Origin: Bryobacterales bacterium
GTDB lineage: Bacteria > Acidobacteriota > Terriglobia > Bryobacterales > UBA6623
Reading direction: 5' to 3'
DNA: 64,000 nucleotides
NCBI GenBank assembly: GCA_022824585.1
Contig: JAJDZN010000072.1
Coordinates: 1 to 64,000, forward strand
Shown: positions 45,502 through 57,804 of the stretch, piece by piece
Layout: every line of letters starts with the position of its first letter
Position numbering within the stretch: position 1 is the first letter of the stretch
Notes under the pieces: model-generated
Told to the model about the DNA's origin: nothing
The model's database searches: none
What the model saw: only the letters and a program-made list of their open reading frames with translations
Translations under genes and position numbers: made by a program

Positions 45502-46014
45502 TCAGTAGACCGGCGTCCCGTACGGCACCGGCGTCTCGACGCGCTGAATCTCGCTGACCCTCGCAATCTTCCAGACCTCGCCGGCTCGCTCGAGGAAGAT
45601 CTGCTGAACCTCGTTGCGGTCCGCGTAGACATACTCCACTCGCACTTGGGCCTCTGGGCCGGCCTCTTCGGGCGCGTTCATGGCGATGCCCTTGATGTCC
45701 CTGTTGCGCTCGCGGAGGAATTCCGAGAAGCGCTCCGGCCCCATCTCTTCCATGCTCTGGCGGAGCGTGCGTTCCATCTGTCCCGTGTAGCAGTCCAAGT
45801 AATCGTCTACCAGCCCGTCCCGGGCAGCGTCGAGCATGGAATAGATCACATCCCGCGGTTCTTCCGGCCTGGAAGAGCCGAGGCCCAAGAAGCCGCTGTC
45901 GTCGCTGCCGCCAAAGTTCAGGCGCTCGAACCCGCCCTGGTACCAGGCGATGATCGCCAAGCCGGCAACGATGACCGTGACCGTGACTGCCTGCGCCTTC
46001 GCATCCTTGCTCAT
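45502..46014 (-). CDS. Small membrane-anchored protein (possible NTF2-like fold), last gene of SPFH/P-ATPase operon
   Basis: MSKDAKAQAVTVTVIVAGLAIIAWYQGG (TM), then DVIYSMLDAARDGLVDDYLDCYTGQMERTLRQSMEEMGPERFSEFL...EYVYADRNEVQQIFLERAGEVWKIARV; ATGA overlap with the upstream gene. Confidence 0.7.
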   Translation of the reverse strand: MSKDAKAQAVTVTVIVAGLAIIAWYQGGFERLNFGGSDDSGFLGLGSSRPEEPRDVIYSMLDAARDGLVDDYLDCYTGQMERTLRQSMEEMGPERFSEFLRERNRDIKGIAMNAPEEAGPEAQVRVEYVYADRNEVQQIFLERAGEVWKIARVSEIQRVETPVPYGTPVY

Positions 46015-47003
46015 GGCAGCGACGACTGGCGACTGCTGCCCCGCCGGATGATGTTCAGGTCGAGATTGCCGTCCTCGTCGACGATCGTCTTGCGCAGGCG
46101 CGGCAGTATCTCTTCCATCGTCTCCAGGAACAGGCGGCTGCGCGTCACTTCGGGGTTCCGAGCGTATTCCGAGGCCAGTTTCTCGAATCTGGCGGCGTCG
46201 CCCCGAGCCTGCTGGACGCGGCGTTCGCGGTAGCCGTGTGACGCGGACAGCATCTGCTGCGCCTGCCCGCGCGCCCGGGGAAGGATGTCGTTGGCGTAGC
46301 CCTCGGCTTCGTTGACGATCCGCGCGGAATCCGCCCTGGCCGATGCGACGTCCCGGAAGGCATCGGCCGCCTCCGCTGGCGGGGTGACCGAGCGGATGTT
46401 CACGGTCGAGAGCACGACCCCTAATCCGTGGCGGTCGATCAGCTCTTGCGACTGCCGCCGCACTTCCTCTTGGATCGCGATCTTCTCCGTCGTGAGGACC
46501 TCGTCCACCGCCCGGGTGGAGATCTGCCGCTCGAGAGCGGCTTCGACGGCGTTCGCGACCGCTAGGTCGACGTCGGCCGACCGGAACAGATAATTCGCCG
46601 GTTCGGCGATGCTGTATTGCACGACCGCTCGTACGTTGAGGATGTTCTGGTCGCCGCTGAGGAACTGGGAGAGCACGGGGTCGGCAGGCAGGGCGTTCGC
46701 CTCGTCGGCCAGCTCGCCCCCGATGAACGCGCGCTTCAACTCGCGGACCTTCAGCTTGTACACCTGTCCCACGGGCCACGGCCAGTGCCAGCCGACGCCG
46801 GGCATGACCTGATCGTTCGACAACGCCCCGAAGGTTGTCAGCACGGCCTGTTGCTCGGTGCGAATCACGTAGACGCCCGAGAACAGCCACAGCGCCGCGA
46901 GAGCGCCCGCCAAGTGGCGTGCCGAAACCTGCCGCAGGCTCTCGCCGAGCGGCCCGCCGGACGGGCTGTCGGTCGCCGGAGACGGGTGCGCGTGCTGGTG
47001 CAT
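46011..47003 (-). CDS. SPFH/Band 7 protein, HflK-like
   Basis: LWLFSGVYVIRTEQQAVLTTFGALSNDQVMPGVGWHWPWPVGQVYKLKVRE...SARIVNEAEGYANDILPRARGQAQQML; start reassigned to ATG 47003. Confidence 0.9.
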   Translation of the reverse strand: MHQHAHPSPATDSPSGGPLGESLRQVSARHLAGALAALWLFSGVYVIRTEQQAVLTTFGALSNDQVMPGVGWHWPWPVGQVYKLKVRELKRAFIGGELADEANALPADPVLSQFLSGDQNILNVRAVVQYSIAEPANYLFRSADVDLAVANAVEAALERQISTRAVDEVLTTEKIAIQEEVRRQSQELIDRHGLGVVLSTVNIRSVTPPAEAADAFRDVASARADSARIVNEAEGYANDILPRARGQAQQMLSASHGYRERRVQQARGDAARFEKLASEYARNPEVTRSRLFLETMEEILPRLRKTIVDEDGNLDLNIIRRGSSRQSSLP

Positions 47004-47011
47004 GGCCGGTG

Positions 47012-48007
47012 CTATTGCCCCCTCGTCAGCAGACGCAGCAATTCTGAGTCGGCGCTGAGGATCACGGTCGTGTCCTCGTCCAGGGCCTTGCGGTAGGCTT
47101 CCAAGGTCCGCGTGAGCTTGTAGAAGGACTGGTTGCGGGAATAGGCCGCGCCATAAACGCGAGCGGCAGCCGCGTCGCCTTCGCCCTTGGTGGTCTCGGC
47201 CTCCTTGTACGCCTTGGCTAGGATTTCCTCCTTCTTCCTGTCGGCTTCGGCCCGGATTCGCAGGGCCTGCTCCTCGCCCTCGGCGCGGTACTGCCGGGCG
47301 ATCCGCTCGCGCTCGGCGCGCATGCGGGCGTACACGCTCTGCTTGTTCTGCTCCGGCAGGTTGAGCCGCTTGAGGCGCACGTCGGCAATGCTGATGCCGT
47401 ACTCCTCCAGCGCTGCCGTACCGCTGCGCTCGGCCAACTTGTCGAGCACTTCCTCGGTCTTGACCTGTTTCGGCGACGTCGAGACGATTTCTTCCAAGTC
47501 GAGATTGGCGATCGTCGCCGCCAGGCCGGACCAAACCAGGTCGTGCAGGCGCATTTCGGCCGCTCTCTCGTTGCCGACAGCCTGCACGAACGCCTGCGGG
47601 TCGGCGATCTGCCACAGGGCATAGGTGTCGATGCTCAGGTTCTTCTTGTCCTTGGTCAGGAATTCCGAGCGCGGGGGGTTGTAGACCCGGAGCCGCCGGT
47701 CGAAGAGCTGCACTTGCTGCAGCAGGGGCACCTTGATGCTCAGGCCCGCGTCGGTAACGGTACGGACTGGCTTGCCCAATTGCGTGACCAGGGCGAACTC
47801 TGTCTCGCGCACCGTGAACAGGGCTGACCAGGCCAGGACCGCCACTCCCAGCGCCAGCAGCAGGTTGCGGTTGCGCTGCACCAGCCCGCGCCAGTCGAAC
47901 GGCTCCTTGGGAGCGTGGTCGTGATGGTGCCCGTGCGCATGCTGCTCGTCCCCGTGCTTGTGGTCATGGGAATGGCCGTGGTCGTGTGTGTGGTGGTGGT
48001 CGTGCAT
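47012..48007 (-). CDS. SPFH/Band 7 protein, HflC-like, with His-rich N-terminal extension
   Basis: MHDHHHTHDHGHSHDHKHGDEQHAHGHHHDH then TM and HflC-type FTVRETEFALVTQLGKPVR...YRAEGEEQALRIRAEADRKKEEILAKAYKEAETTKGEGDAAAARVYGAAYSRNQSFYKLTRTLEAYRKAL. Confidence 0.92.
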   Translation of the reverse strand: MHDHHHTHDHGHSHDHKHGDEQHAHGHHHDHAPKEPFDWRGLVQRNRNLLLALGVAVLAWSALFTVRETEFALVTQLGKPVRTVTDAGLSIKVPLLQQVQLFDRRLRVYNPPRSEFLTKDKKNLSIDTYALWQIADPQAFVQAVGNERAAEMRLHDLVWSGLAATIANLDLEEIVSTSPKQVKTEEVLDKLAERSGTAALEEYGISIADVRLKRLNLPEQNKQSVYARMRAERERIARQYRAEGEEQALRIRAEADRKKEEILAKAYKEAETTKGEGDAAAARVYGAAYSRNQSFYKLTRTLEAYRKALDEDTTVILSADSELLRLLTRGQ

Positions 48008-48010
48008 GGT

Positions 48011-51000
48011 CTATTCCCCCAGCTCGGCGGGCTCGAATGGCGGCGGCGGCTGTTGCATCTGGGCTCCCGGCGGCGCGACGATCACCCCCTCGTCCATTGT
48101 CCAGAGCGTGCGGCGGCCGCCCGAAGAATCGATGATGAGTTTCTTGCGGCCCGGCAGGATCTCTTCCATCGCTTCCAGGTACAGCCGCGTGGAAGTCGGC
48201 CCGGGAGCGGCGCGATAGGCTGACTCGAGCTGCTGGAAGCGCGCCGCGTCGCCGCCCGCGCGGTCCGTGCGGCTCGCCATGTAGCCGTGGGCCTCCTGCA
48301 CCAGCGCCTCGCCTTGGCCCCTGGCCAGCGCGACCTGCTCGTTGGCGTAGCCCTCGGCCTCGTTGATCATCCGGCTCTTTTCTTCCAAGGCCCCGGCGAC
48401 CTCGCGGAACGCATCGACGACCTCTACCGACGGGTGCATGTCCTGGAAGCGGACGTGCCGCACGCGCACCCCGGTGCCGTAGTCTGCAAGCCGCCGCTGC
48501 AGCTCTTCGGCGGCCCGCTGCTCGGTCCGGTGGCGGCCGGTGGTCAATAACGCATCCAGCGACACCGTGTTCACCACGCTGCGCAGCGCCGCTTCCGATG
48601 CGGCGCGGATGACGGCCTCGGGATCGAGCTGTTGGAAGATGTAGTCGTCAGGCCGGTCGATGTCGTAGTGCACCACGGCGGTCATCTCGATCATGTTCTG
48701 GTCGCCGGTCAGCATCAGCGTTTCCTCGTCCTCGAGCTGGATGCGGCCGTCCCTGTGCTGGAGGTTCCATTCGTAGGACGGAGGCTCGCTGAACGCCGCG
48801 TCGTCCGAAGTCCGGAATCCGATCTCGATCGCGCGAATCTGCCTTGCCCGCACGCGCGTCAGCCGGTCGACGGGCCACGGCAGCTTGAAGTTCAATCCGG
48901 GCTCTCGATTGGGCAGCACCCTGCGGCCGAAGCGCTCGACCACGCCCACTTCCTCGGTGCGGATGGTGAAGACTGCCGTGGACGCCCACAGCGCAAGCAG
49001 AGCGGCTGCGGCGGGCTTTGCCAGCAGCCGGCGGTTCTCTACCAGCCACGCGAAGCCCGCGGCGGGATCGATGCCGCGCAGGATGTCGAGGATCGCCCTC
49101 CAGAGCTGGGCGATGCCGACATGCGACCGCACGCGCTCCCAGCGCGAGAGCTGGCCGGCGGGCCGCTCGATGCGCAGCAGGCGCACCGAGTTGAGCATCA
49201 CGAAGATCGAGGAGATCTGGTGGACTCCGGCGGCTAGTGCCGGCCCCATCCAGCCGATGCCGGCGATGTAGACGGAAACCACGTTGACCACGCCGGCGAA
49301 GAGGATGATGTTCTGCCACACCGTGGTGACGGCCCGCCTGGAAACACCGAACAGCTTGGGCAGCCTCCCGATCTCCGGGTTGAGATCGACGACATCGGCT
49401 GCCTCGGCCGCGATGTCGGCGCCGGAACCCGAGATCGCCACGCCGACATCGGCTGCCGCCAGGGCGGGCGCGTCGTTGACGCCGTCGCCGATCATGGCAA
49501 CCTTGCGGCCCTGCACCTGCAGTTGCTTGATCCGGTCCAGCTTTTGCTCCGGCAGCAGTTCGGCCTCCACGTGCGTGATGCCGACCACCCGCGCCATCGC
49601 GTCGGCGGCCTTGCGACGGTCGCCTGTGAGCAGGATGATGTTGCTGATGCCCAGGTCCTCGATCTCGTGGACCGCATCGTGAGCGCCCTGGCGCGGCGTG
49701 TCTCGCAGCAAGATCGCGCCCGCGCAGCGGTCGCCCTCGGCGACCAGGACCGGGGTCGCCCCAGCCCGGTCGGAGGCGGTCAAGTAGTCTTCGAGGCCAT
49801 AGATGCCGTGGTCGTTGAGGAAGGCCTCGTTGCCGGCTCGGACGGTCTTGCCGCGATGGATGCACTCGGCGCCGCGCCCGGGCACGATCTGTGCGTCTTG
49901 GAATTCCCCGGCGGCGATCCCGCGCTCTTCGGCGGTGCGGACGATCACCTTGGCGAGCGGGTGGTCCGAGCTCGCTTCCGCGGTCGCCCCGAGAGTGAGC
50001 ACCTGTTCCTCGGTGTGGCCCGGGGCCACCAAGATATCGACGATCTCGAACTCGCCGGTGGTCAGCGTGCCGGTCTTGTCGAACACGATGGTGTCGATTT
50101 TGGAGGCCGTCTGGACGACCTGCCCTCCGCGGGCCAGCAGGCCGCGGCGGGCCAAGCCGCCGATGGCGGCAACCATGGCGGCGGGAGTGGCCAGGATCAG
50201 TGCGCAGGGGCACCCGACGATCAGGACCGCCACGGCCCGGCGCACGCGCTCGGTGGCCTCGACGTCGCTGGAGAGGAAATAGACCGCGCCGGCAGCCAGC
50301 AGGATGGCCGGCAGGAAGTAGCGGGCGTAGCGGTCCGCTTCCCGCACCACCGGCGCGGTGCGGTGGTCGCGGGCCTCTTCCACCAAGTGAATGAGCCGCG
50401 CTAGGGTGGACTCCTCCGCGGCATAGGTCACCCGGATGTGGAGCAGGCCGTGACCGTTCAGGGTGCCCGAGAATACTTCGTCCCCCTCGCTCTTGTCGCG
50501 AGGCACGGACTCTCCCGTGATGGGGCTCTCGTCGACCGACGATTCACCGCGTTCGACCGTGCCATCGGCGGCGATGCGCTCGCCGGCGCGCACGACGACC
50601 AAGTCGCCGGGCTCCAAGTCCTCGACATGGACTTCGACCTCCTCGCCATCGCGCAGCACGCGGGCATGGTGGGGCAGCTGGTCCACGAAGCGGTGGATCG
50701 CCCGTTCGGTCCGCCCGGCGGCCCAGGCCTCCAGGCCCTCGCCGAGGAGCATGATGAACATGGCCTCGGCGGCCGCCAAGTATTCTCCGATCGCCAGGGC
50801 CGCGCCCGCCGCGATGACGATCGCGAGGTCTGCCGAGATCTTGCGCTCGAGGAGCTCGGAAATGGCCCGGTAAAAGGTCTTGTAGCCCGCCAGCACCGCG
50901 AGGAAGATCGCTGTGTCGATTCCAAGCAAGGAATCGAAGATGCCGAACAGGTTCAGCAGCAGCAGGACGCCGACGACAACCGTGAACCCTACGTACTTGA

Positions 51001-51052
51001 TCTGCTCGCGGCGGTCGCGATTTATCGCATGGTCCTCGGAGACGACATGCAC
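48011..51052 (-). CDS. Fusion: P1B-type metal-translocating ATPase (about aa 1-640) + HflK-like SPFH domain (about aa 676-1013)
   Basis: SSVDESPITGESVP, VGCPCALILATP, FDKTGTLTTGEFE, SSDHPLAK, MIGDGVNDAPALAAADVGVAI; then TM and TAVFTIRTEEVGVVERFGRRVLPNREPGLNFKLPWPVDRL...MINEAEGYANEQVALARGQGEALVQEAHGYMASRTDRAGGDAARFQQL in a single open frame. Confidence 0.93.
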   Translation of the reverse strand: MHVVSEDHAINRDRREQIKYVGFTVVVGVLLLLNLFGIFDSLLGIDTAIFLAVLAGYKTFYRAISELLERKISADLAIVIAAGAALAIGEYLAAAEAMFIMLLGEGLEAWAAGRTERAIHRFVDQLPHHARVLRDGEEVEVHVEDLEPGDLVVVRAGERIAADGTVERGESSVDESPITGESVPRDKSEGDEVFSGTLNGHGLLHIRVTYAAEESTLARLIHLVEEARDHRTAPVVREADRYARYFLPAILLAAGAVYFLSSDVEATERVRRAVAVLIVGCPCALILATPAAMVAAIGGLARRGLLARGGQVVQTASKIDTIVFDKTGTLTTGEFEIVDILVAPGHTEEQVLTLGATAEASSDHPLAKVIVRTAEERGIAAGEFQDAQIVPGRGAECIHRGKTVRAGNEAFLNDHGIYGLEDYLTASDRAGATPVLVAEGDRCAGAILLRDTPRQGAHDAVHEIEDLGISNIILLTGDRRKAADAMARVVGITHVEAELLPEQKLDRIKQLQVQGRKVAMIGDGVNDAPALAAADVGVAISGSGADIAAEAADVVDLNPEIGRLPKLFGVSRRAVTTVWQNIILFAGVVNVVSVYIAGIGWMGPALAAGVHQISSIFVMLNSVRLLRIERPAGQLSRWERVRSHVGIAQLWRAILDILRGIDPAAGFAWLVENRRLLAKPAAAALLALWASTAVFTIRTEEVGVVERFGRRVLPNREPGLNFKLPWPVDRLTRVRARQIRAIEIGFRTSDDAAFSEPPSYEWNLQHRDGRIQLEDEETLMLTGDQNMIEMTAVVHYDIDRPDDYIFQQLDPEAVIRAASEAALRSVVNTVSLDALLTTGRHRTEQRAAEELQRRLADYGTGVRVRHVRFQDMHPSVEVVDAFREVAGALEEKSRMINEAEGYANEQVALARGQGEALVQEAHGYMASRTDRAGGDAARFQQLESAYRAAPGPTSTRLYLEAMEEILPGRKKLIIDSSGGRRTLWTMDEGVIVAPPGAQMQQPPPPFEPAELGE

Positions 51053-51276
51053 TGGTAGACAAAGATAGCAAAGACGGTCGTTGGCCTCCCTGATTAGCGG
51101 GGCCTCGGGCGTCGATCCATGTGCAATGGGCGCGACTAGCTAAGGTGATCGTCGCCGTGCGGCAGAGCCGCTCCGCCCTCGCCACGGGGTACCCGCAGCG
51201 CGCCCCTCGACCGGTGCCCGCCGCTGCCTCTACCGTCCCCCAGAAGCCGATCGGCGCATTGTACAATCACTGCTTC

Positions 51277-52899
51277 ATGCCCGGGAAGAGCTACGCGAAG
51301 GGCCCGACCATCCCCCTGATCGGCGAGACCATCGGGGATGTTTTCGACAAGGCGGTCGCGTCGCACTCGGACAAGGATGCCCTCGTCTCGCGCCACCAAG
51401 GGCTGCGGCTCACGTACGCAGACCTCGACAGGGGCGTGAGCGAAGTCGCGGCAGGGCTGTGGGGCTTGGGAATCCGTCCCGGCGACAGGGTCGGCATGTG
51501 GGCCTCGAGCTGCGTCGAATGGGTCTACCTGCAAGTTGCCACTGCCAAGATCGGAGCCGTCCTGGTCAACGTCAATCCCGCCTACCGCGCCCGCGACCTG
51601 ACATACATCTTGGAACGCTCGGGCATCAAGGCCATCTTCCTGCACGAGCAGGACGCCCGCGTGAACTACGCCGACCTGCTGGAGGAGGCGAAGGGCAGGA
51701 GCAATCACTCCCTGCGCGCTTCGGTGCTGCTAGGCACGTCGCAGTGGGACCGGATGATCGGCGGCGGAGTCGCTCCAGATCCCGGACCGAGAGACTTGCA
51801 CGAGGTCGTCAACATCCAGTACACATCCGGCACGACCGGCAGCCCGAAGGGCGTGCTGCTCACCCACCACAACATAGTCAACAATGCCCACCTCGTCGGT
51901 GCCGGGCTGCGCTGGACGCCCGCGGACATCCTGTGCATGCCCGTGCCCCTCTACCACTGCTTCGGCTGCGTCCTGGGTTCGTTGCAGTGCATCGTCCACG
52001 GAGCGACGCTCGTGCTGCCCTCGGCGCAATTCGACCCCTTGGCAACTCTCCAAGCCATTGACGAATTGCGCTGCACGACAGTCTACGGAGTGCCGACCAT
52101 GTTCGTCGCCGAACTCGACCATCCCCAGTTCGCCAGCTTCGATACCACCTGCCTGCGCACCGGGATCATGGCCGGCTCGCCATGCCCCGTAGAGCTGATG
52201 AAGCGGGTCGTGCGACAGATGCACTGCTCGGAGATGACCATCGCCTACGGCCAGACAGAATCATCCCCCGCCATTACGCAGAGCACTTGCGACGATCCGC
52301 TGGAGGTTCGCACTGCCACGGTCGGGCAGGCGATGCCGTGTACGGAGGTGAAGGTGATTGATCCGGAGACAGGCGAGACCGTTGACGTGGGTGTGCAGGG
52401 CGAATTGCTGACGCGCGGCTATCTCGTGATGAAGGGCTACGACAAGGATCCCGAAAACACGGCCCGGGCGGTTGACGGGGACGGCTGGCTGCACACCGGA
52501 GACCTAGCCACGATGCGCCCGGACGGCAACCTGCGCATCACCGGGCGCGCCCGGGAAATGATCATCCGCGGCGGCGAGAACGTCTATCCGAGGGAGATCG
52601 AGGAGTACCTGCACACGCACCCCGACATCGCGGACGTGTACGTCTTCGGCGTTCCTGACGAGCGCCTCGGGGAGCGCGTGGCGGCCTGGGTCAAGGCGCG
52701 CGACGGTTCCGGCCTCGCAGAAGAAGCAGTCAAGGCGTTCTGCCAAGGCCAGATCGCCCACTTCAAGATTCCCGAGCTGATTCGGTTCGTCGACGAGTTC
52801 CCGCTGACAGTCACCGGGAAGGTGCAGAAGTTCATCATGCGCGAGCGCGAGATCGAACTGCGCGGCCTCGCCGGGGCCGCCGCGGTGGAGACCGCCTGA
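51277..52899 (+). CDS. AMP-binding acyl-CoA synthetase
   Basis: NIQYTSGTTGSPKGVLLTHHNIVNN; TIAYGQTESSPAITQS; GWLHTGDLATMRPDGNLRITGRAREMIIRGGENVYPREIEEYLHTHPDI; start reassigned to 51277. Confidence 0.95.
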   Translation: MPGKSYAKGPTIPLIGETIGDVFDKAVASHSDKDALVSRHQGLRLTYADLDRGVSEVAAGLWGLGIRPGDRVGMWASSCVEWVYLQVATAKIGAVLVNVNPAYRARDLTYILERSGIKAIFLHEQDARVNYADLLEEAKGRSNHSLRASVLLGTSQWDRMIGGGVAPDPGPRDLHEVVNIQYTSGTTGSPKGVLLTHHNIVNNAHLVGAGLRWTPADILCMPVPLYHCFGCVLGSLQCIVHGATLVLPSAQFDPLATLQAIDELRCTTVYGVPTMFVAELDHPQFASFDTTCLRTGIMAGSPCPVELMKRVVRQMHCSEMTIAYGQTESSPAITQSTCDDPLEVRTATVGQAMPCTEVKVIDPETGETVDVGVQGELLTRGYLVMKGYDKDPENTARAVDGDGWLHTGDLATMRPDGNLRITGRAREMIIRGGENVYPREIEEYLHTHPDIADVYVFGVPDERLGERVAAWVKARDGSGLAEEAVKAFCQGQIAHFKIPELIRFVDEFPLTVTGKVQKFIMREREIELRGLAGAAAVETA

Positions 52900-55800
52900 T
52901 CAGCCGCCGCGCTGCAGGTCGGCCTGCTTGAGCACCCACTCGCGGATCACGCCGTAGCCCGGGTCGCCCGCTTCGTAGCGCACCCCGCCTTGGTGCCCGT
53001 CCTCGTCACCGGACTGGATATTGAGCGGCTTGCGCAGGAACTTGCTCTTTTCGACATCGTGCAGGTCCACCCGTGCTTGCATGCGCCGGTAGTTGCCCAG
53101 CAGCGCTTGGGGCGGGATGTAGCCCGCCGCGTCCGGCGGGTCCAAGTAGAGGGTAGGCACGCGTCCCGGCACGCCGTGGCAGGAAATGCAGGCGCGGTTG
53201 TCGCGCGAGTCGATGCGCGTCATCTCGGTGAACACGTAGTCGCGGAAGTGGATGATGTCTTCGATCCACTCGTCGGAATCGGCCAGCGCCCGGACATCGC
53301 TGCCTTGCTGCGCCTTGCTCTCTTCGGCGATGATCTCGCGCAGGCGCTTGCCGTAGATCTTGTCGTCGCTGTTGAGGATGTTCTGGATGCGGGTGCGGTA
53401 GAGCGGGCTCGGCTCGTGGTCGATCCAGGCCGTCAGCGCCTTCAGCACTTCGGGATGTCGGCGCAGCGCGGTCTTGTTGGCCAGCGCGATCGCCTGCTTG
53501 CGCACGTCCTCGGGCGAGTCTTCGGAGAACCACGAGGTGAACATGCCGACGAGCCTGTCCTTGGCCTCCACGATGGGATCGATCACGTCGATGCCCAACT
53601 CGTCCTTGGTGAACAGCGAGCCGGCGGTCTCGCCTGGCTCTAGCTTGAGGTAGTCCAGGCCGAAGATGTAGTTCGGCTCGGCGTCGTCGTTCGAGCCGAC
53701 CATGCGGAAAGTCAGCCGGTTCTGGCCAGCCTTGAACTCATGCACGCCCAGTGACACCGGGCCGGGAGCGGTGAGGCTCTCGCGGTAGAAGTCGATCGCG
53801 TCTTCGATGCTTTCGCCGTTGAGGAGCGGCTGGACGGTGCCCATTTCCCGGTCGTGAAGGAACGCAGCGATAATCTCGTAGGGCCCGCCTTCGGGCGCTT
53901 CCACCCCGAACGTGAGTTCGTTGCCGGGCAGCCCCTCGCGCCACCACAGGATCGTGTTGCGGCTGGTGAGGCCGTCCGGCACGAGCTGCTTGGTGGTGCG
54001 TCCGCCCGTCAGGTCCAAGACCTCTAGGTCCTCGGCCTCGGTGGCGCCTTCGATGGCCTCTTCCATGGTGGGGCCGCCCTCCTGATAGCGCAGCATCCAC
54101 TCCGTCGATGGCAGCCAGAAGAGCGCGTCCCCGCCGACGTGGTCGAACGCCGCCCGGCGGTGCAGCGTGGGGTTGTTGCCTAGCACCCGTCCCAGCAGCG
54201 TCGCCCTTTCGCTGTCCGCCGGGGATTGGTCCGTGGCGCTGGGGGCCGGCCTTCCCAGCAGGTGCGGCGCGGCGGCGATCGGGGACTGGCGCGCAGGCGG
54301 CACGAGCAGCTTGAAGAACTCGCGCTCGAGATCGGCGTTGTCCTCGCCCTCGCTGAACTGCCAGCGGACCCGCGATAGGAAACGGACCAGCGCTTCGGCA
54401 TCGTCCTGCCGGCCGGCATTCAGGAACGCATCGAGCTTGGCCAGCAGAGGACGGATCGTCTCGACGTCGCCGGAGAGCCGCAGGGCGCTGGGGTTGGACA
54501 GGGCCTTGGCCGCGGCAGCGACCTGTTCTAGGTCGTCGCCTTGCAGCAGTTCCAGCAGGTGGCGCTGCAAACGGGCCGAGTTCACGTTGGCGGCACCTTG
54601 CAGCGCGATGGACCTCCACGGCACCTGCCCGTCGTCGCTGCGCGTCTGGTAGATGCTGAGCAGGATGTCACCGATCAGCTCGGTCGCGCCGGGCGTCGAG
54701 TATCCGAGCTGGCCGGGGCCGCCGTCTCCGCCGCGCTCTTGGAAATGAGTCGCCGCCACGGCCGCCAAGCGCTGTTCGAGCAGGTCTCGCCGGTCTCCCG
54801 CCCGTTGCCGGGCAGACGACAGCATCCGGTACAGGTCTTCCAACTCGCGGTACTGCTGCTCGCGGTTGTCGGTGCCGGTCTGGTTCGCGATCTGACCGTT
54901 GACGATCAGCATCGAGGTCGTCGAGTAGCGCATCGCATTCTCGACGTGGCTGTTCGGTTCGGGCTGTTGCAGGACCGCGACCCAGGCGCGGTTGATGCGC
55001 TGGCGCAGCGGCGGGTTCCAGACCCACTGGTGCCACGCTGCCTTGAACGCGTAGGCCCGCACGCCCGGGAACGGATCGCGCATGGCATCGGCGAGTAGGT
55101 CGGCCAGTTCGTTGGCGTCCACTTGGGAGCGCGGCCCGACCAGGTCCGCCCGCATGATCAGGGATTGCAGGACCGATTGCCGCGTGCGCTCGTCACCGCC
55201 GCGATAGGCCGCTAGCACGGCTGGCCAGCCCTGATCGTCCAGGAGCAACTGGCGCAGCGACCAGAAGGCGGCTTCGCGGCACGCCTTGACCGGATCGGAG
55301 AGCCCAGAAATCAAGGCGGGGATGCCAGCCGGGGCCAGCGAGCCGCCAATGCCGAGGTAGCCGTAGTAGCGGACCTGCGGCATCTCGTCGTCGGTTGCGG
55401 CAATCATCAGGTCTGCGAAGTCCGCCCGGCCAGTGGTTTGCAGAGCCCGGACGCGGGAGAGCTTCTCCAAGGCGGATTCGTCGGGTCCCGGCTCGAAGTC
55501 GCTCCGTTCGAACGGCTGGGCGTCGCCCGGGAACAGGCGGCTGAGGGCGCGGATCACGTAGGCGTTGGTGACGAAGCCGGTCTGTGCCGAGCGGTTCCAG
55601 AGCCCGTATTCGAACTGCTTCTCCAGCAGCCAACGCACGGCGCGCTTGACCGGGGGGCTGTCCGGGCCCTGTCCCGCGGCCCGCAGGGCGATGAGCGACA
55701 CCGCCGTTGGCGCGGGGTCCCCCTCTTCATCGATTCGGTTCCAGGAGTCCGTGGCCTCGTCGTGCACACCGAGGTCGAAGCCCCACGATCCGTCCTCTTG

Positions 55801-57804
55801 CTGCAGGGCCAGCAGCCGCTTCATGTCGCGCTCGACCTGCGCTTCGAACGCCGGCAGCAGTTCCCGGGCCCGCTTGCCCAACTCGGCCTCGGCGTCGAGC
55901 TTGGCGAGTTCCTCGCGCGGGAGCAGATCGTGGAAGAACTCGATACGGTGGCCCAGGTCGTCGGTGACCTTGATCTGGACGTCGCCGGTGGCGACGATCT
56001 TCTCGGCCTTCTCGACCACGCCGGCAAGGTACTTCTCTTCGCCGCTGTCGCGCCACGCCCGCTCAAGGATCTCGGCCGCGAACTTGAAGACCACGTTCGG
56101 GCCGAAGTTAGAGCCCCTGCCCGCGGCGTTGATGCCCTGCGGGTCGTTGGTTTGCAGCACATAGTTGGCGGTACGCTTCTGCTGGTACGAGTGCAGCTTC
56201 TTGGGCTGGAAGGTGCGCTCGTGCTGCACCACGTTGCGGCCCGCCACGCGGCTGCCCGCGGGGGCGTCGCCGAGATCGTTGGGCGCCAGCGAGGTGTTCA
56301 CGGCGGCGTCGACGAGTTCGTTGGTCGGCCGCAGGCTCTCGTACATCGTGTTGACGAGCCGGCGGTGGTTCTGGACCGTCCCATCGGGGCGATAGCCGTG
56401 CCGCAGCGCGTCGGCGACGCCCCACACTCCGCTCTGGGTGTGGCAGCTCATGCAGTTCTCGCCGAAAAGGCTCGAGCCGTCCCGGACGCGGCGATGCACC
56501 GCGATGTTGCGCGGGCGGTGAATCAGCCAGGCGTCGATCTCGGCAAGGTGGTAGTAGATGGATTGGCGCAGTGCCTGCTGAGGTGTGTCGAACGGAGCCG
56601 GCTCGACCAGGCGGACTTCCAGCTCGTAGCCCGGCTGGTTCGCTTCCACCCGCAGGTAATACGTGCCGCCGGGCTGCACGCGGCGCGTGACGAACGAGCG
56701 GAAGTTGTCGTCTTGCTGGTGGATGCGCTCGTTGACGTCGCGGCCGTCGTAATAGGTGTAGACCTGCTCCGGGCCGGGGATCACCTCGGTGTCGGGATGG
56801 ATATAGGGCACTGCCTCGTTATTGCCGAAATCCTCACGCTTGGCGGCCTCGCGATGCTCCAGCTCCTCGGCCGTGGGAGTGCCCGGCTTGTACACCCGGA
56901 TGCGCGCGCTGACGACGGGTTCGACGAGCTGCAGGTTGGCCGTCAAGAGCTTGACCCTGTCGCCGCGGTAGACGAAGCGGTACCAATCGTCGGGCGAGCT
57001 TCCGGAGGCGGCGTTGTCGAAGTACTCCAGGTCGTCAGCGCCGCCGATGACGCGCAGGACTTGGTCGGCGTTGCCAGGCTCGAATGGCAGCAAGACCGCT
57101 TCTTCCGGGGCGTTGTTGGGCTCGGTTTCGAGCACGAGGTCACCCGAGACAGTCTGGGACACGTGCGCGACGTCGACAGTTATCGCTATGTCGTCGATGC
57201 CCGGCGTTCGTTTCGGAGCGGCCGCGGCAAGCCGGGCAAGCCCTTGGTCGCGATGGTACGGCGCCGTGGGCCAAGGCTCATCCGTGAGGGTTGTCAAGGA
57301 GAGTTCGTAAGTGCCTGCCCGCGGAGCCTTGTACGTCTGGTACACGTCCGGGTCCAGCGCATGCAGGACCTTGGTCCAGCCGTTCTCCTCGCCTTGCACC
57401 AGGTCCCCCCGGCTCATCGACGGAGTGGTTTGGGCAGTGCTCGGAGGAGGCCCGCTCCAGCGCGCTGAGATGCGGCCGTTGTCGGGAAGCCTGCCCGGGT
57501 TGGCGATGCCGGCTTGGATCCGAACCGTCTCGCCCTTGGCGAGATCCCACGAGCGTGTCCAGCTGCCGTCAAACTGGACCGTTTCGCCGAGGGCCGGTCC
57601 GGCCAGCAAAGCGCTCAGACACAGTGCGAGCAAGAGCAGACGGGAGCCTCCGGTTCGACGGACACAGTGCTTCCGAGATCCCGGATTCCTGGAGAACGAT
57701 TGCCCGGGGATCGCTGGAGCGTGGAGAGCGGTAATCGGGGTGGCCATGATCATGATGTCGATGTGCCCACGAAGCCTCGGCACCGTCGGCTTGCAGGTCT
57801 GCAA
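52900..57804 (-). CDS. Very large secreted diheme c-type cytochrome-like protein with toroid (QxDGSW) and HEAT-like repeats
   Basis: CMSCH (56440-56454) and CISCH (53175-53189); LLALQQEDGSWGFDLG...TAVSLIALRAAGQG; alpha-helical repeats; C-terminal region NRLTFRMVGSNDDAEPNYIFGLDYLKLEPG carbohydrate-binding-like. Confidence 0.8.
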   Translation of the reverse strand: MQTCKPTVPRLRGHIDIMIMATPITALHAPAIPGQSFSRNPGSRKHCVRRTGGSRLLLLALCLSALLAGPALGETVQFDGSWTRSWDLAKGETVRIQAGIANPGRLPDNGRISARWSGPPPSTAQTTPSMSRGDLVQGEENGWTKVLHALDPDVYQTYKAPRAGTYELSLTTLTDEPWPTAPYHRDQGLARLAAAAPKRTPGIDDIAITVDVAHVSQTVSGDLVLETEPNNAPEEAVLLPFEPGNADQVLRVIGGADDLEYFDNAASGSSPDDWYRFVYRGDRVKLLTANLQLVEPVVSARIRVYKPGTPTAEELEHREAAKREDFGNNEAVPYIHPDTEVIPGPEQVYTYYDGRDVNERIHQQDDNFRSFVTRRVQPGGTYYLRVEANQPGYELEVRLVEPAPFDTPQQALRQSIYYHLAEIDAWLIHRPRNIAVHRRVRDGSSLFGENCMSCHTQSGVWGVADALRHGYRPDGTVQNHRRLVNTMYESLRPTNELVDAAVNTSLAPNDLGDAPAGSRVAGRNVVQHERTFQPKKLHSYQQKRTANYVLQTNDPQGINAAGRGSNFGPNVVFKFAAEILERAWRDSGEEKYLAGVVEKAEKIVATGDVQIKVTDDLGHRIEFFHDLLPREELAKLDAEAELGKRARELLPAFEAQVERDMKRLLALQQEDGSWGFDLGVHDEATDSWNRIDEEGDPAPTAVSLIALRAAGQGPDSPPVKRAVRWLLEKQFEYGLWNRSAQTGFVTNAYVIRALSRLFPGDAQPFERSDFEPGPDESALEKLSRVRALQTTGRADFADLMIAATDDEMPQVRYYGYLGIGGSLAPAGIPALISGLSDPVKACREAAFWSLRQLLLDDQGWPAVLAAYRGGDERTRQSVLQSLIMRADLVGPRSQVDANELADLLADAMRDPFPGVRAYAFKAAWHQWVWNPPLRQRINRAWVAVLQQPEPNSHVENAMRYSTTSMLIVNGQIANQTGTDNREQQYRELEDLYRMLSSARQRAGDRRDLLEQRLAAVAATHFQERGGDGGPGQLGYSTPGATELIGDILLSIYQTRSDDGQVPWRSIALQGAANVNSARLQRHLLELLQGDDLEQVAAAAKALSNPSALRLSGDVETIRPLLAKLDAFLNAGRQDDAEALVRFLSRVRWQFSEGEDNADLEREFFKLLVPPARQSPIAAAPHLLGRPAPSATDQSPADSERATLLGRVLGNNPTLHRRAAFDHVGGDALFWLPSTEWMLRYQEGGPTMEEAIEGATEAEDLEVLDLTGGRTTKQLVPDGLTSRNTILWWREGLPGNELTFGVEAPEGGPYEIIAAFLHDREMGTVQPLLNGESIEDAIDFYRESLTAPGPVSLGVHEFKAGQNRLTFRMVGSNDDAEPNYIFGLDYLKLEPGETAGSLFTKDELGIDVIDPIVEAKDRLVGMFTSWFSEDSPEDVRKQAIALANKTALRRHPEVLKALTAWIDHEPSPLYRTRIQNILNSDDKIYGKRLREIIAEESKAQQGSDVRALADSDEWIEDIIHFRDYVFTEMTRIDSRDNRACISCHGVPGRVPTLYLDPPDAAGYIPPQALLGNYRRMQARVDLHDVEKSKFLRKPLNIQSGDEDGHQGGVRYEAGDPGYGVIREWVLKQADLQRGG

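What the first reader, a model, noticed from the sequence alone, without database searches (positions are those of the whole stretch)
48011..51052. P1B-type metal ATPase fused in frame to an HflK-like SPFH domain
One uninterrupted 1013-aa frame carries a complete P1B ATPase core (TGES, CPC, DKTGT, HP, GDGVND) with no N-terminal HMA domain. A roughly 40-aa linker, a new TM segment and a full HflK-type SPFH/coiled-coil domain follow (SPFH about 48011-49030). SPFH proteins form large membrane cages or microdomains, and HflK/HflC enclose FtsH. Covalent tethering would place a metal pump in an SPFH assembly, which I do not recognise as a described system.
Basis: partly seen in the sequence, partly recalled or inferred. 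Interest (0 to 1): 0.9.

Follow-up and report, generated by a model that had tools for sequence, protein, structure and literature searches.

The report
Metal pump fused to SPFH cage protein
In many soil, water and sponge-associated Acidobacteriota, and in some Armatimonadota, a metal-exporting pump is made as one protein with HflK, a subunit that in E. coli builds large membrane cages, together with two more cage subunits and a small partner protein, which points to an undescribed way of anchoring metal pumps in a membrane assembly.

Summary
The fusion is real. One 1013-aa frame (48011-51052, minus strand) carries a complete P1B ATPase (residues 1-628), a linker, a ninth TM helix and an HflK-type SPFH domain (about 694-975). 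It is no assembly error: 76 fusion proteins were aligned, and samples show it in 41/150 genomes of the order, 20/396 across the phylum (Acidobacteriota) and about 12/251 Armatimonadota. It heads a conserved four-gene unit: [ATPase::HflK]-[HflC]-[HflK2]-[TM + NTF2-like protein]. Catalytic residues are invariant and both halves are under purifying selection. HflC here has a His-rich tail; in 38/100 related loci some subunit does. Relatives strengthen the metal link: similar SPFH trios begin with HflK fused to an ArsP_1/SO_0444-type Cu/Zn permease (also in this genome) or a CDF exporter, or carry an unfused P1B ATPase next door. Best reading: a metal-efflux platform in which the exporter is a built-in subunit of an HflK/HflC-type assembly. 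Assembly, metal and any role with FtsH are inferred, not shown. Full-text searches found no description; literature coverage was partial.

The parts
48011..51052 (-). Fusion gene: P1B ATPase::HflK, 1013 aa, GTG start, stop included
49169..51052 (-). P1B ATPase part, residues 1-628, 8 predicted TM helices, no HMA domain found
50204..50212 (-). CPC motif of M4 (residues 281-283), invariant in the 50-sequence alignment
50066..50080 (-). DKTGT phosphorylation site (325-329)
49472..49489 (-). GDGVND hinge motif (522-527)
49208..49222 (-). M6 signature HQISS (611-615); HQ present in every fusion listed
49034..49168 (-). Variable linker with predicted short helices (629-673), relaxed selection in the two more distant comparisons
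48974..49033 (-). Ninth TM helix (674-693), the TM of HflK
48128..48973 (-). HflK-type SPFH domain and coiled coil (694-975)
48755..48775 (-). Fusion-specific insert motif YEWNxQH (760-766): YEW[NDT] in 75/76 fusions; YEW in 0/7 unfused HflK, 0/98 HflC, 3/99 HflK2-class ORFs
47012..48007 (-). HflC-type protein, 331 aa (TIGR01932, 224 bits, cut-off 134)
47915..48007 (-). His-rich N-terminal tail of the HflC protein (residues 1-31), expected to be cytosolic
46011..47003 (-). Second HflK-type protein (HflK2), 330 aa (TIGR01933, 230 bits)
45502..46014 (-). Fourth gene, 170 aa: N-terminal TM helix plus NTF2-like fold; no Pfam family; ATGA overlap with HflK2

Best explanation
This is a metal-efflux platform. 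The first gene encodes a transition-metal exporting P1B ATPase whose cytosolic C-terminus runs through a flexible linker into the TM helix and periplasmic SPFH domain of an HflK-type subunit. That subunit co-assembles with the HflC-type and second HflK-type proteins of the same operon, so the pump becomes a fixed stoichiometric part of an SPFH ring or vault in the inner membrane. His-rich cytosolic tails on one subunit, where present, may gather metal in place of the missing HMA domain, and the NTF2-like protein is an inner-membrane-anchored periplasmic accessory. Shown here: the fusion, gene order, conservation, intact catalytic residues, purifying selection and recurrence with other metal exporters. 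Inferred: assembly, topology of the assembly, export direction, metal identity and the roles of the tails and of the fourth protein.
For: Domains and motifs. Conserved frame in many assemblies. Gene order ATPase::HflK, HflC, HflK2 in nearly all of 100 loci of two phyla, and the fourth gene found in 82. FUS, HflC and HflK2 form separate groups with largely matching inner branching; fused ATPases form one clade apart from unfused CopA-like and ZntA-like pumps of the same order (100/97). Catalytic and CPC residues invariant in 50 sequences. Low dN/dS in both halves. Topology is coherent: an even number of ATPase TM helices leaves the linker in the cytosol, so TM9 takes the SPFH domain to the periplasm, where HflK/C lies in E. 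coli. Other SPFH trios start with HflK fused to ArsP_1/SO_0444-type permeases or to CDF exporters, or carry a separate P1B ATPase gene. Metal genes lie beside some of these trios: RND efflux, ZnuA, FeoB_N, CbiX. P-ATPase efflux platforms built by a non-SPFH scaffold exist in mycobacteria (PMC9374683).
Against: No complex was modelled or measured. The flanks of the window-type unit are mostly unrelated genes and no metal regulator was recognised (read by eye). Most loci (62/100) lack a His-rich tail by the threshold used. In the order no separate strong HflK was found beside these operons, so the complex may mainly serve FtsH there. One genome (G043) has a fusion lacking about residues 347-542, so pumping may be dispensable in that lineage.
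Confidence: 0.6

Rival explanations
1. The unit is an HflK/HflC-type regulator of FtsH in which the ATPase serves mainly as a metal sensor or regulator, so that membrane proteolysis responds to metal stress rather than the cage serving export.
For: In the order no separate strong HflK hit was seen in fusion-bearing genomes, apart from the ArsP-type trios of the window's family; the window's genome has one FtsH, on another contig; E. coli HflK/C encloses FtsH (PMC12048511).
Against: Genomes of g101 and f23 also have a further HflK-type match elsewhere, about 38-39% identical and mostly in a short frame. FtsH is not in the unit. Fusion of HflK to other exporter families fits export better than sensing.
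Confidence: 0.22
2. The ATPase no longer pumps and serves as a large membrane anchor for the SPFH subunit.
For: G043 carries a version lacking about residues 347-542, including GDGVND, while keeping TM helices and SPFH.
Against: CPC, DKTG and the key GDGxND positions are invariant in 50 fusions; dN/dS of the ATPase half is 0.03-0.08 in the informative pairs.
Confidence: 0.05
3. Two functionally separate proteins are made as one polyprotein and cleaved in the linker; the fusion only fixes the expression ratio.
For: The linker is variable and evolves fast in the two more distant comparisons (dN/dS about 0.44-0.47).
Against: Essentially unsplit in all well-assembled genomes seen; the few split cases (L099, L144, L145, L151) look like frameshifts in draft assemblies. 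The SPFH half carries a fusion-specific insert motif.
Confidence: 0.1
4. Assembly or annotation artefact.
For: The window is from a draft assembly (91.8% complete, 6.4% contaminated).
Against: The same frame recurs in dozens of independent assemblies, including one-contig genomes.
Confidence: 0.01

Closest known systems
E. coli HflK/HflC assembly with FtsH (PDB 7vhp, 7wi3, 9cz1; PMC12048511)
   Same: SPFH part is an HflK by curated model and best solved relative; neighbouring HflC gene; one TM helix with the bulk periplasmic
   Different: HflK carries a P1B ATPase at its N-terminus, there are three SPFH genes rather than two, plus an NTF2-like protein, and the SPFH domain has an extra YEWN insert
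P1B-type metal ATPases (solved: CopA 3rfu/4bbj, ZntA 4umv/4umw, CoaT-type 7qbz)
   Same: Complete catalytic core, CPC in M4, 8 TM; folds of 4bbj, 4umw and 7qbz are the nearest
   Different: No HMA domain found; M6 motif HQxxS matches neither the MxLSS of the CopA-like nor the ADMG of the ZntA-like pumps of this order nor the HEGST of 7qbz; C-terminal HflK fusion
PacL1-CtpC metal efflux platforms of mycobacteria (PMC9374683)
   Same: A P1B ATPase held in a high-molecular-weight membrane assembly by a scaffold from its operon; scaffold with a metal-binding motif
   Different: PacL1 is a small DUF1490 protein, not an SPFH protein; the partners are not fused; foci are independent of flotillin
SO_0444-family Cu/Zn efflux permease (NF033936, PF03773)
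   Same: Metal exporter that, in relatives, is also fused to HflK at the head of an SPFH trio
   Different: Unrelated transporter family, not an ATPase

Membership tests
P1B-type heavy-metal ATPase | Curated family score (TIGR01525) above cut-off | tested here: met
   562 bits against 346
P1B-type heavy-metal ATPase | TGES, CPx in M4, DKTGT, SxHP, GDGxND and about 8 TM helices | tested here: met
P1B-type heavy-metal ATPase | N-terminal HMA-type metal-binding domain (common, not universal, so not defining) | tested here: not met
   No HMA domain reported; a His-rich tail sits on the HflC partner instead
Named P1B subgroup (1, 2 or 4) | Subgroup M4/M6 signatures | tested here: not met
   CPC with HQxxS; HQ in every fusion listed; compared with unfused pumps of the order and 7qbz
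P1B-type heavy-metal ATPase | Metal-stimulated ATP hydrolysis and transport | not testable with these tools
   needs purified protein
HflK (TIGR01933) | Curated score above cut-off | tested here: met
   206.6 bits against 159.4
HflK (TIGR01933) | Single TM helix before the SPFH domain, C-terminal coiled coil | tested here: met
   TM 674-693, long helix 876-948 in a model of mean pLDDT 77
HflK/HflC-FtsH holoenzyme | HflC partner encoded next door | tested here: met
   47012-48007, TIGR01932 224 bits against 134
HflK/HflC-FtsH holoenzyme | Physical association with FtsH | not testable with these tools
   FtsH gene lies on another contig
PacL-type metal efflux platform | DUF1490 scaffold in the operon | tested here: not met
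   The operon proteins give no such Pfam match

The most novel reading that the evidence does not exclude
Bacteria repeatedly built transporter-in-a-cage machines. At least three unrelated metal-exporter families (P1B ATPase, SO_0444/ArsP-type permease, CDF) were joined to the N-terminus of HflK at the head of three-SPFH operons, so that exporters sit as integral subunits of a periplasmic SPFH vault that concentrates, confines or hands on the exported metal.
Probability: 0.45. Interest if true: 0.9.

Novelty: new variant of a known kind. Interest (0 to 1): 0.8.

Why it matters
What SPFH cages do for their membrane clients is an open question. Here the client is joined to the cage subunit covalently, and its likely substrate class (transition metals) is suggested by the pump and by independent fusions of other metal exporters to the same subunit, so the question becomes directly testable. 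It would give a structurally tractable route to a cage with a known cargo, and suggests that part of the HflK/HflC family serves metal homeostasis rather than FtsH control.

Tried and rejected
Artefact: rejected by recurrence in many assemblies. Inactive ATPase as the general rule: rejected by invariance and dN/dS. A named P1B subgroup or a metal from motifs: the M6 motif fits none of those compared, so no metal is claimed. Gene context of the window-type unit: neighbours mostly unrelated (read by eye; not scanned systematically). The 251-aa membrane protein upstream in g101 gave no Pfam hit. Rfam: no hits in the window. Plasmids: only ATPase-half matches in the rows listed, none covering 80% of the query. 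The N-terminal membrane domain in L208, L215 and L217 has no Pfam hit; aligned but left unassigned. Two Pfam calls failed because of wrong coordinates. Papers: nothing on SPFH-transporter fusions; preprints and most subscription papers are not held.

Full report
OBSERVATION. The minus-strand ORF 48011-51052 is a single 1013-aa frame. Curated models score both halves above their own cut-offs: TIGR01525 heavy-metal P-type ATPase (562 bits) and TIGR01933 HflK (206.6 bits); Pfam finds E1-E2_ATPase, Hydrolase and Band_7 and reports no HMA domain. The catalytic motifs are intact. An AlphaFold model from a 50-sequence alignment (mean pLDDT 76.9, pTM 0.52) gives ATPase TM helices, short linker helices at 637-672, a ninth TM helix at 674-693 and an SPFH domain ending in a long helix. 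The ATPase part has the fold of solved P1B pumps 4bbj, 4umw and 7qbz. Relative placement of the two halves is not reliable at that pTM.

NOT AN ARTEFACT. The same uninterrupted frame is found in all 11 genomes of the genus searched, including a one-contig genome, and in family and order members down to 55% identity. In samples it occurs in 41 of 150 genomes of the order (counting G496 and G536, whose frames are short, G043, which is shortened, and G519, which is split), in 20 of 396 genomes across the phylum in several families, and in about 12 of 251 Armatimonadota (eight of these are inferred from frame length and match position, the rest from fetched loci). A scan of one genome per species returned 80 loci with named records, nearly all Acidobacteriota MAGs (mostly Bryobacterales) and a few Armatimonadota; records labelled as other phyla (L092, L114, L127) are probably misbinned, L127 apparently being a duplicate of the Acidobacteria contig L125. 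The window lies in this group by its relatives.

A FOUR-GENE UNIT. In nearly all of 100 loci the fusion is followed by an HflC-type gene and a second HflK-type gene. A fourth gene follows in 82 loci; several of the others are cut by contig ends. It encodes an N-terminal TM helix and a domain without Pfam family, predicted with mean pLDDT 86 and resembling NTF2-like proteins (best E 1e-4, modest TM-scores). A maximum-likelihood tree puts fused SPFH, HflC and HflK2 into separate groups with largely matching inner branching; L155 of the fused set is left unresolved outside the main fused group, so single origin is likely but not proven by that tree. The ATPase tree puts all 21 fused pumps into one clade (100/97) apart from unfused pumps of the same order. 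The simplest reading is one old fusion with inheritance as a unit.

SELECTION AND MARKERS. CPC, DKTG and the key GDGxND positions are invariant over 50 fusions. dN/dS against six relatives is 0-0.08 for the ATPase (the zero comes from the nearest relative, which has almost no differences), 0.04-0.14 for SPFH and 0.04-0.47 for the linker. An insert in the fused SPFH carries YEW[NDT] in 75 of 76 fusions; YEW is in none of seven unfused HflK and none of 98 HflC. M6 carries HQ in every fusion listed, unlike the MxLSS and ADMG forms of the unfused pumps and the HEGST of 7qbz. A metal cannot be assigned from this.

METAL CLUES. HflC of this window begins MHDHHHTHDHGHSHDHKHGDEQHAHGHHHDH. By a threshold of six His in 20 residues near the N-terminus, 38 of 100 loci have such a tail: 30 on HflC, 8 on HflK2, 3 on the fusion, with overlap. 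The tail moves between subunits, as expected if any subunit of one assembly can carry it, but most loci lack it.

RELATED FUSIONS. The window's own genome and a complete genome of the genus have a second SPFH trio whose first gene is an ArsP_1 permease fused to an SPFH domain, beside RND efflux genes in the window's genome. The same architecture occurs in four other Acidobacteriota loci (L211, L213, L214, L218); in L213 the permease part scores 356 bits against a cut-off of 300 for the SO_0444 Cu/Zn efflux family. In L210, L216 and, weakly, L209 the first gene is a CDF (Pfam Cation_efflux)::SPFH fusion (the stricter NCBIfam model TIGR01297 is below its cut-off in both proteins tested). In L208, L209, L215 and L217 (all Armatimonadota) the trio is followed by a separate P1B ATPase gene; the one in L209 has a His-rich N-terminus, SPC and HEGST. 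So pump and SPFH trio also occur as neighbours without fusion, which independently supports a working link. A ZnuA protein is encoded next to the L208 unit, and FeoB_N and CbiX proteins near L210.

MECHANISM (inferred). In E. coli HflK and HflC alternate in a 24-subunit periplasmic assembly (PMC12048511). An ATPase with an even number of TM helices ends in the cytosol, so TM9 brings the SPFH domain to the periplasm, consistent with assembly in the same sense. The pump would sit at the membrane rim at fixed stoichiometry. Possible gains are clustering, stability of the pump, local metal capture by His-rich tails, and confinement or hand-over of exported metal. A functional precedent is the PacL1-CtpC efflux platform, which uses an unrelated scaffold (PMC9374683).

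LIMITS. No experiment and no multi-chain model. FtsH association is untested. Census numbers come from samples and from SPFH-half searches with frame length as the sign of fusion. Literature coverage is open-access only.

Noticed in passing
G000 contig C265, L180:5507-10178 (+); G008, L183:3687-8292 (+): Second SPFH trio in the same genus: ArsP_1 permease::HflK fusion, HflC, HflK; in the window's genome beside RND/CusB-like/outer-membrane efflux genes.
   Followed up: partly
G000 contig C98, L179:4018-8521 (-): A further ArsP_1::SPFH trio, with the permease split over two frames (one in-frame TAG reported); strain variant, pseudogene or co-binned contig.
   Followed up: no
L210:4540-6333, L216:15-1787, L209:3455-5419: CDF cation exporter fused to HflK at the head of an SPFH trio; in L209 the CDF part is weak and a separate His-rich P1B ATPase gene follows.
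   Followed up: partly
L208:5384-7261, L215:3656-5650, L217:3150-5024: HflK with an N-terminal membrane domain of no Pfam family, heading a trio followed by an unfused P1B ATPase gene.
   Followed up: partly
L077:8193-10712 (G043): Fusion lacking about residues 347-542 (GDGVND lost, CPC and DKTG kept) in one open frame.
   Followed up: no
L127 and L125: Two records named Cytophagales and Acidobacteria hold the same operon with identical coordinates and scores; probably a misbinned contig.
   Followed up: no
window 52900-57804 (-): 1634-aa ORF with two CxxCH-type haem motifs (CMSCH, CISCH), next to an acyl-CoA-synthetase-like ORF at 51121-52899; not studied.
   Followed up: no
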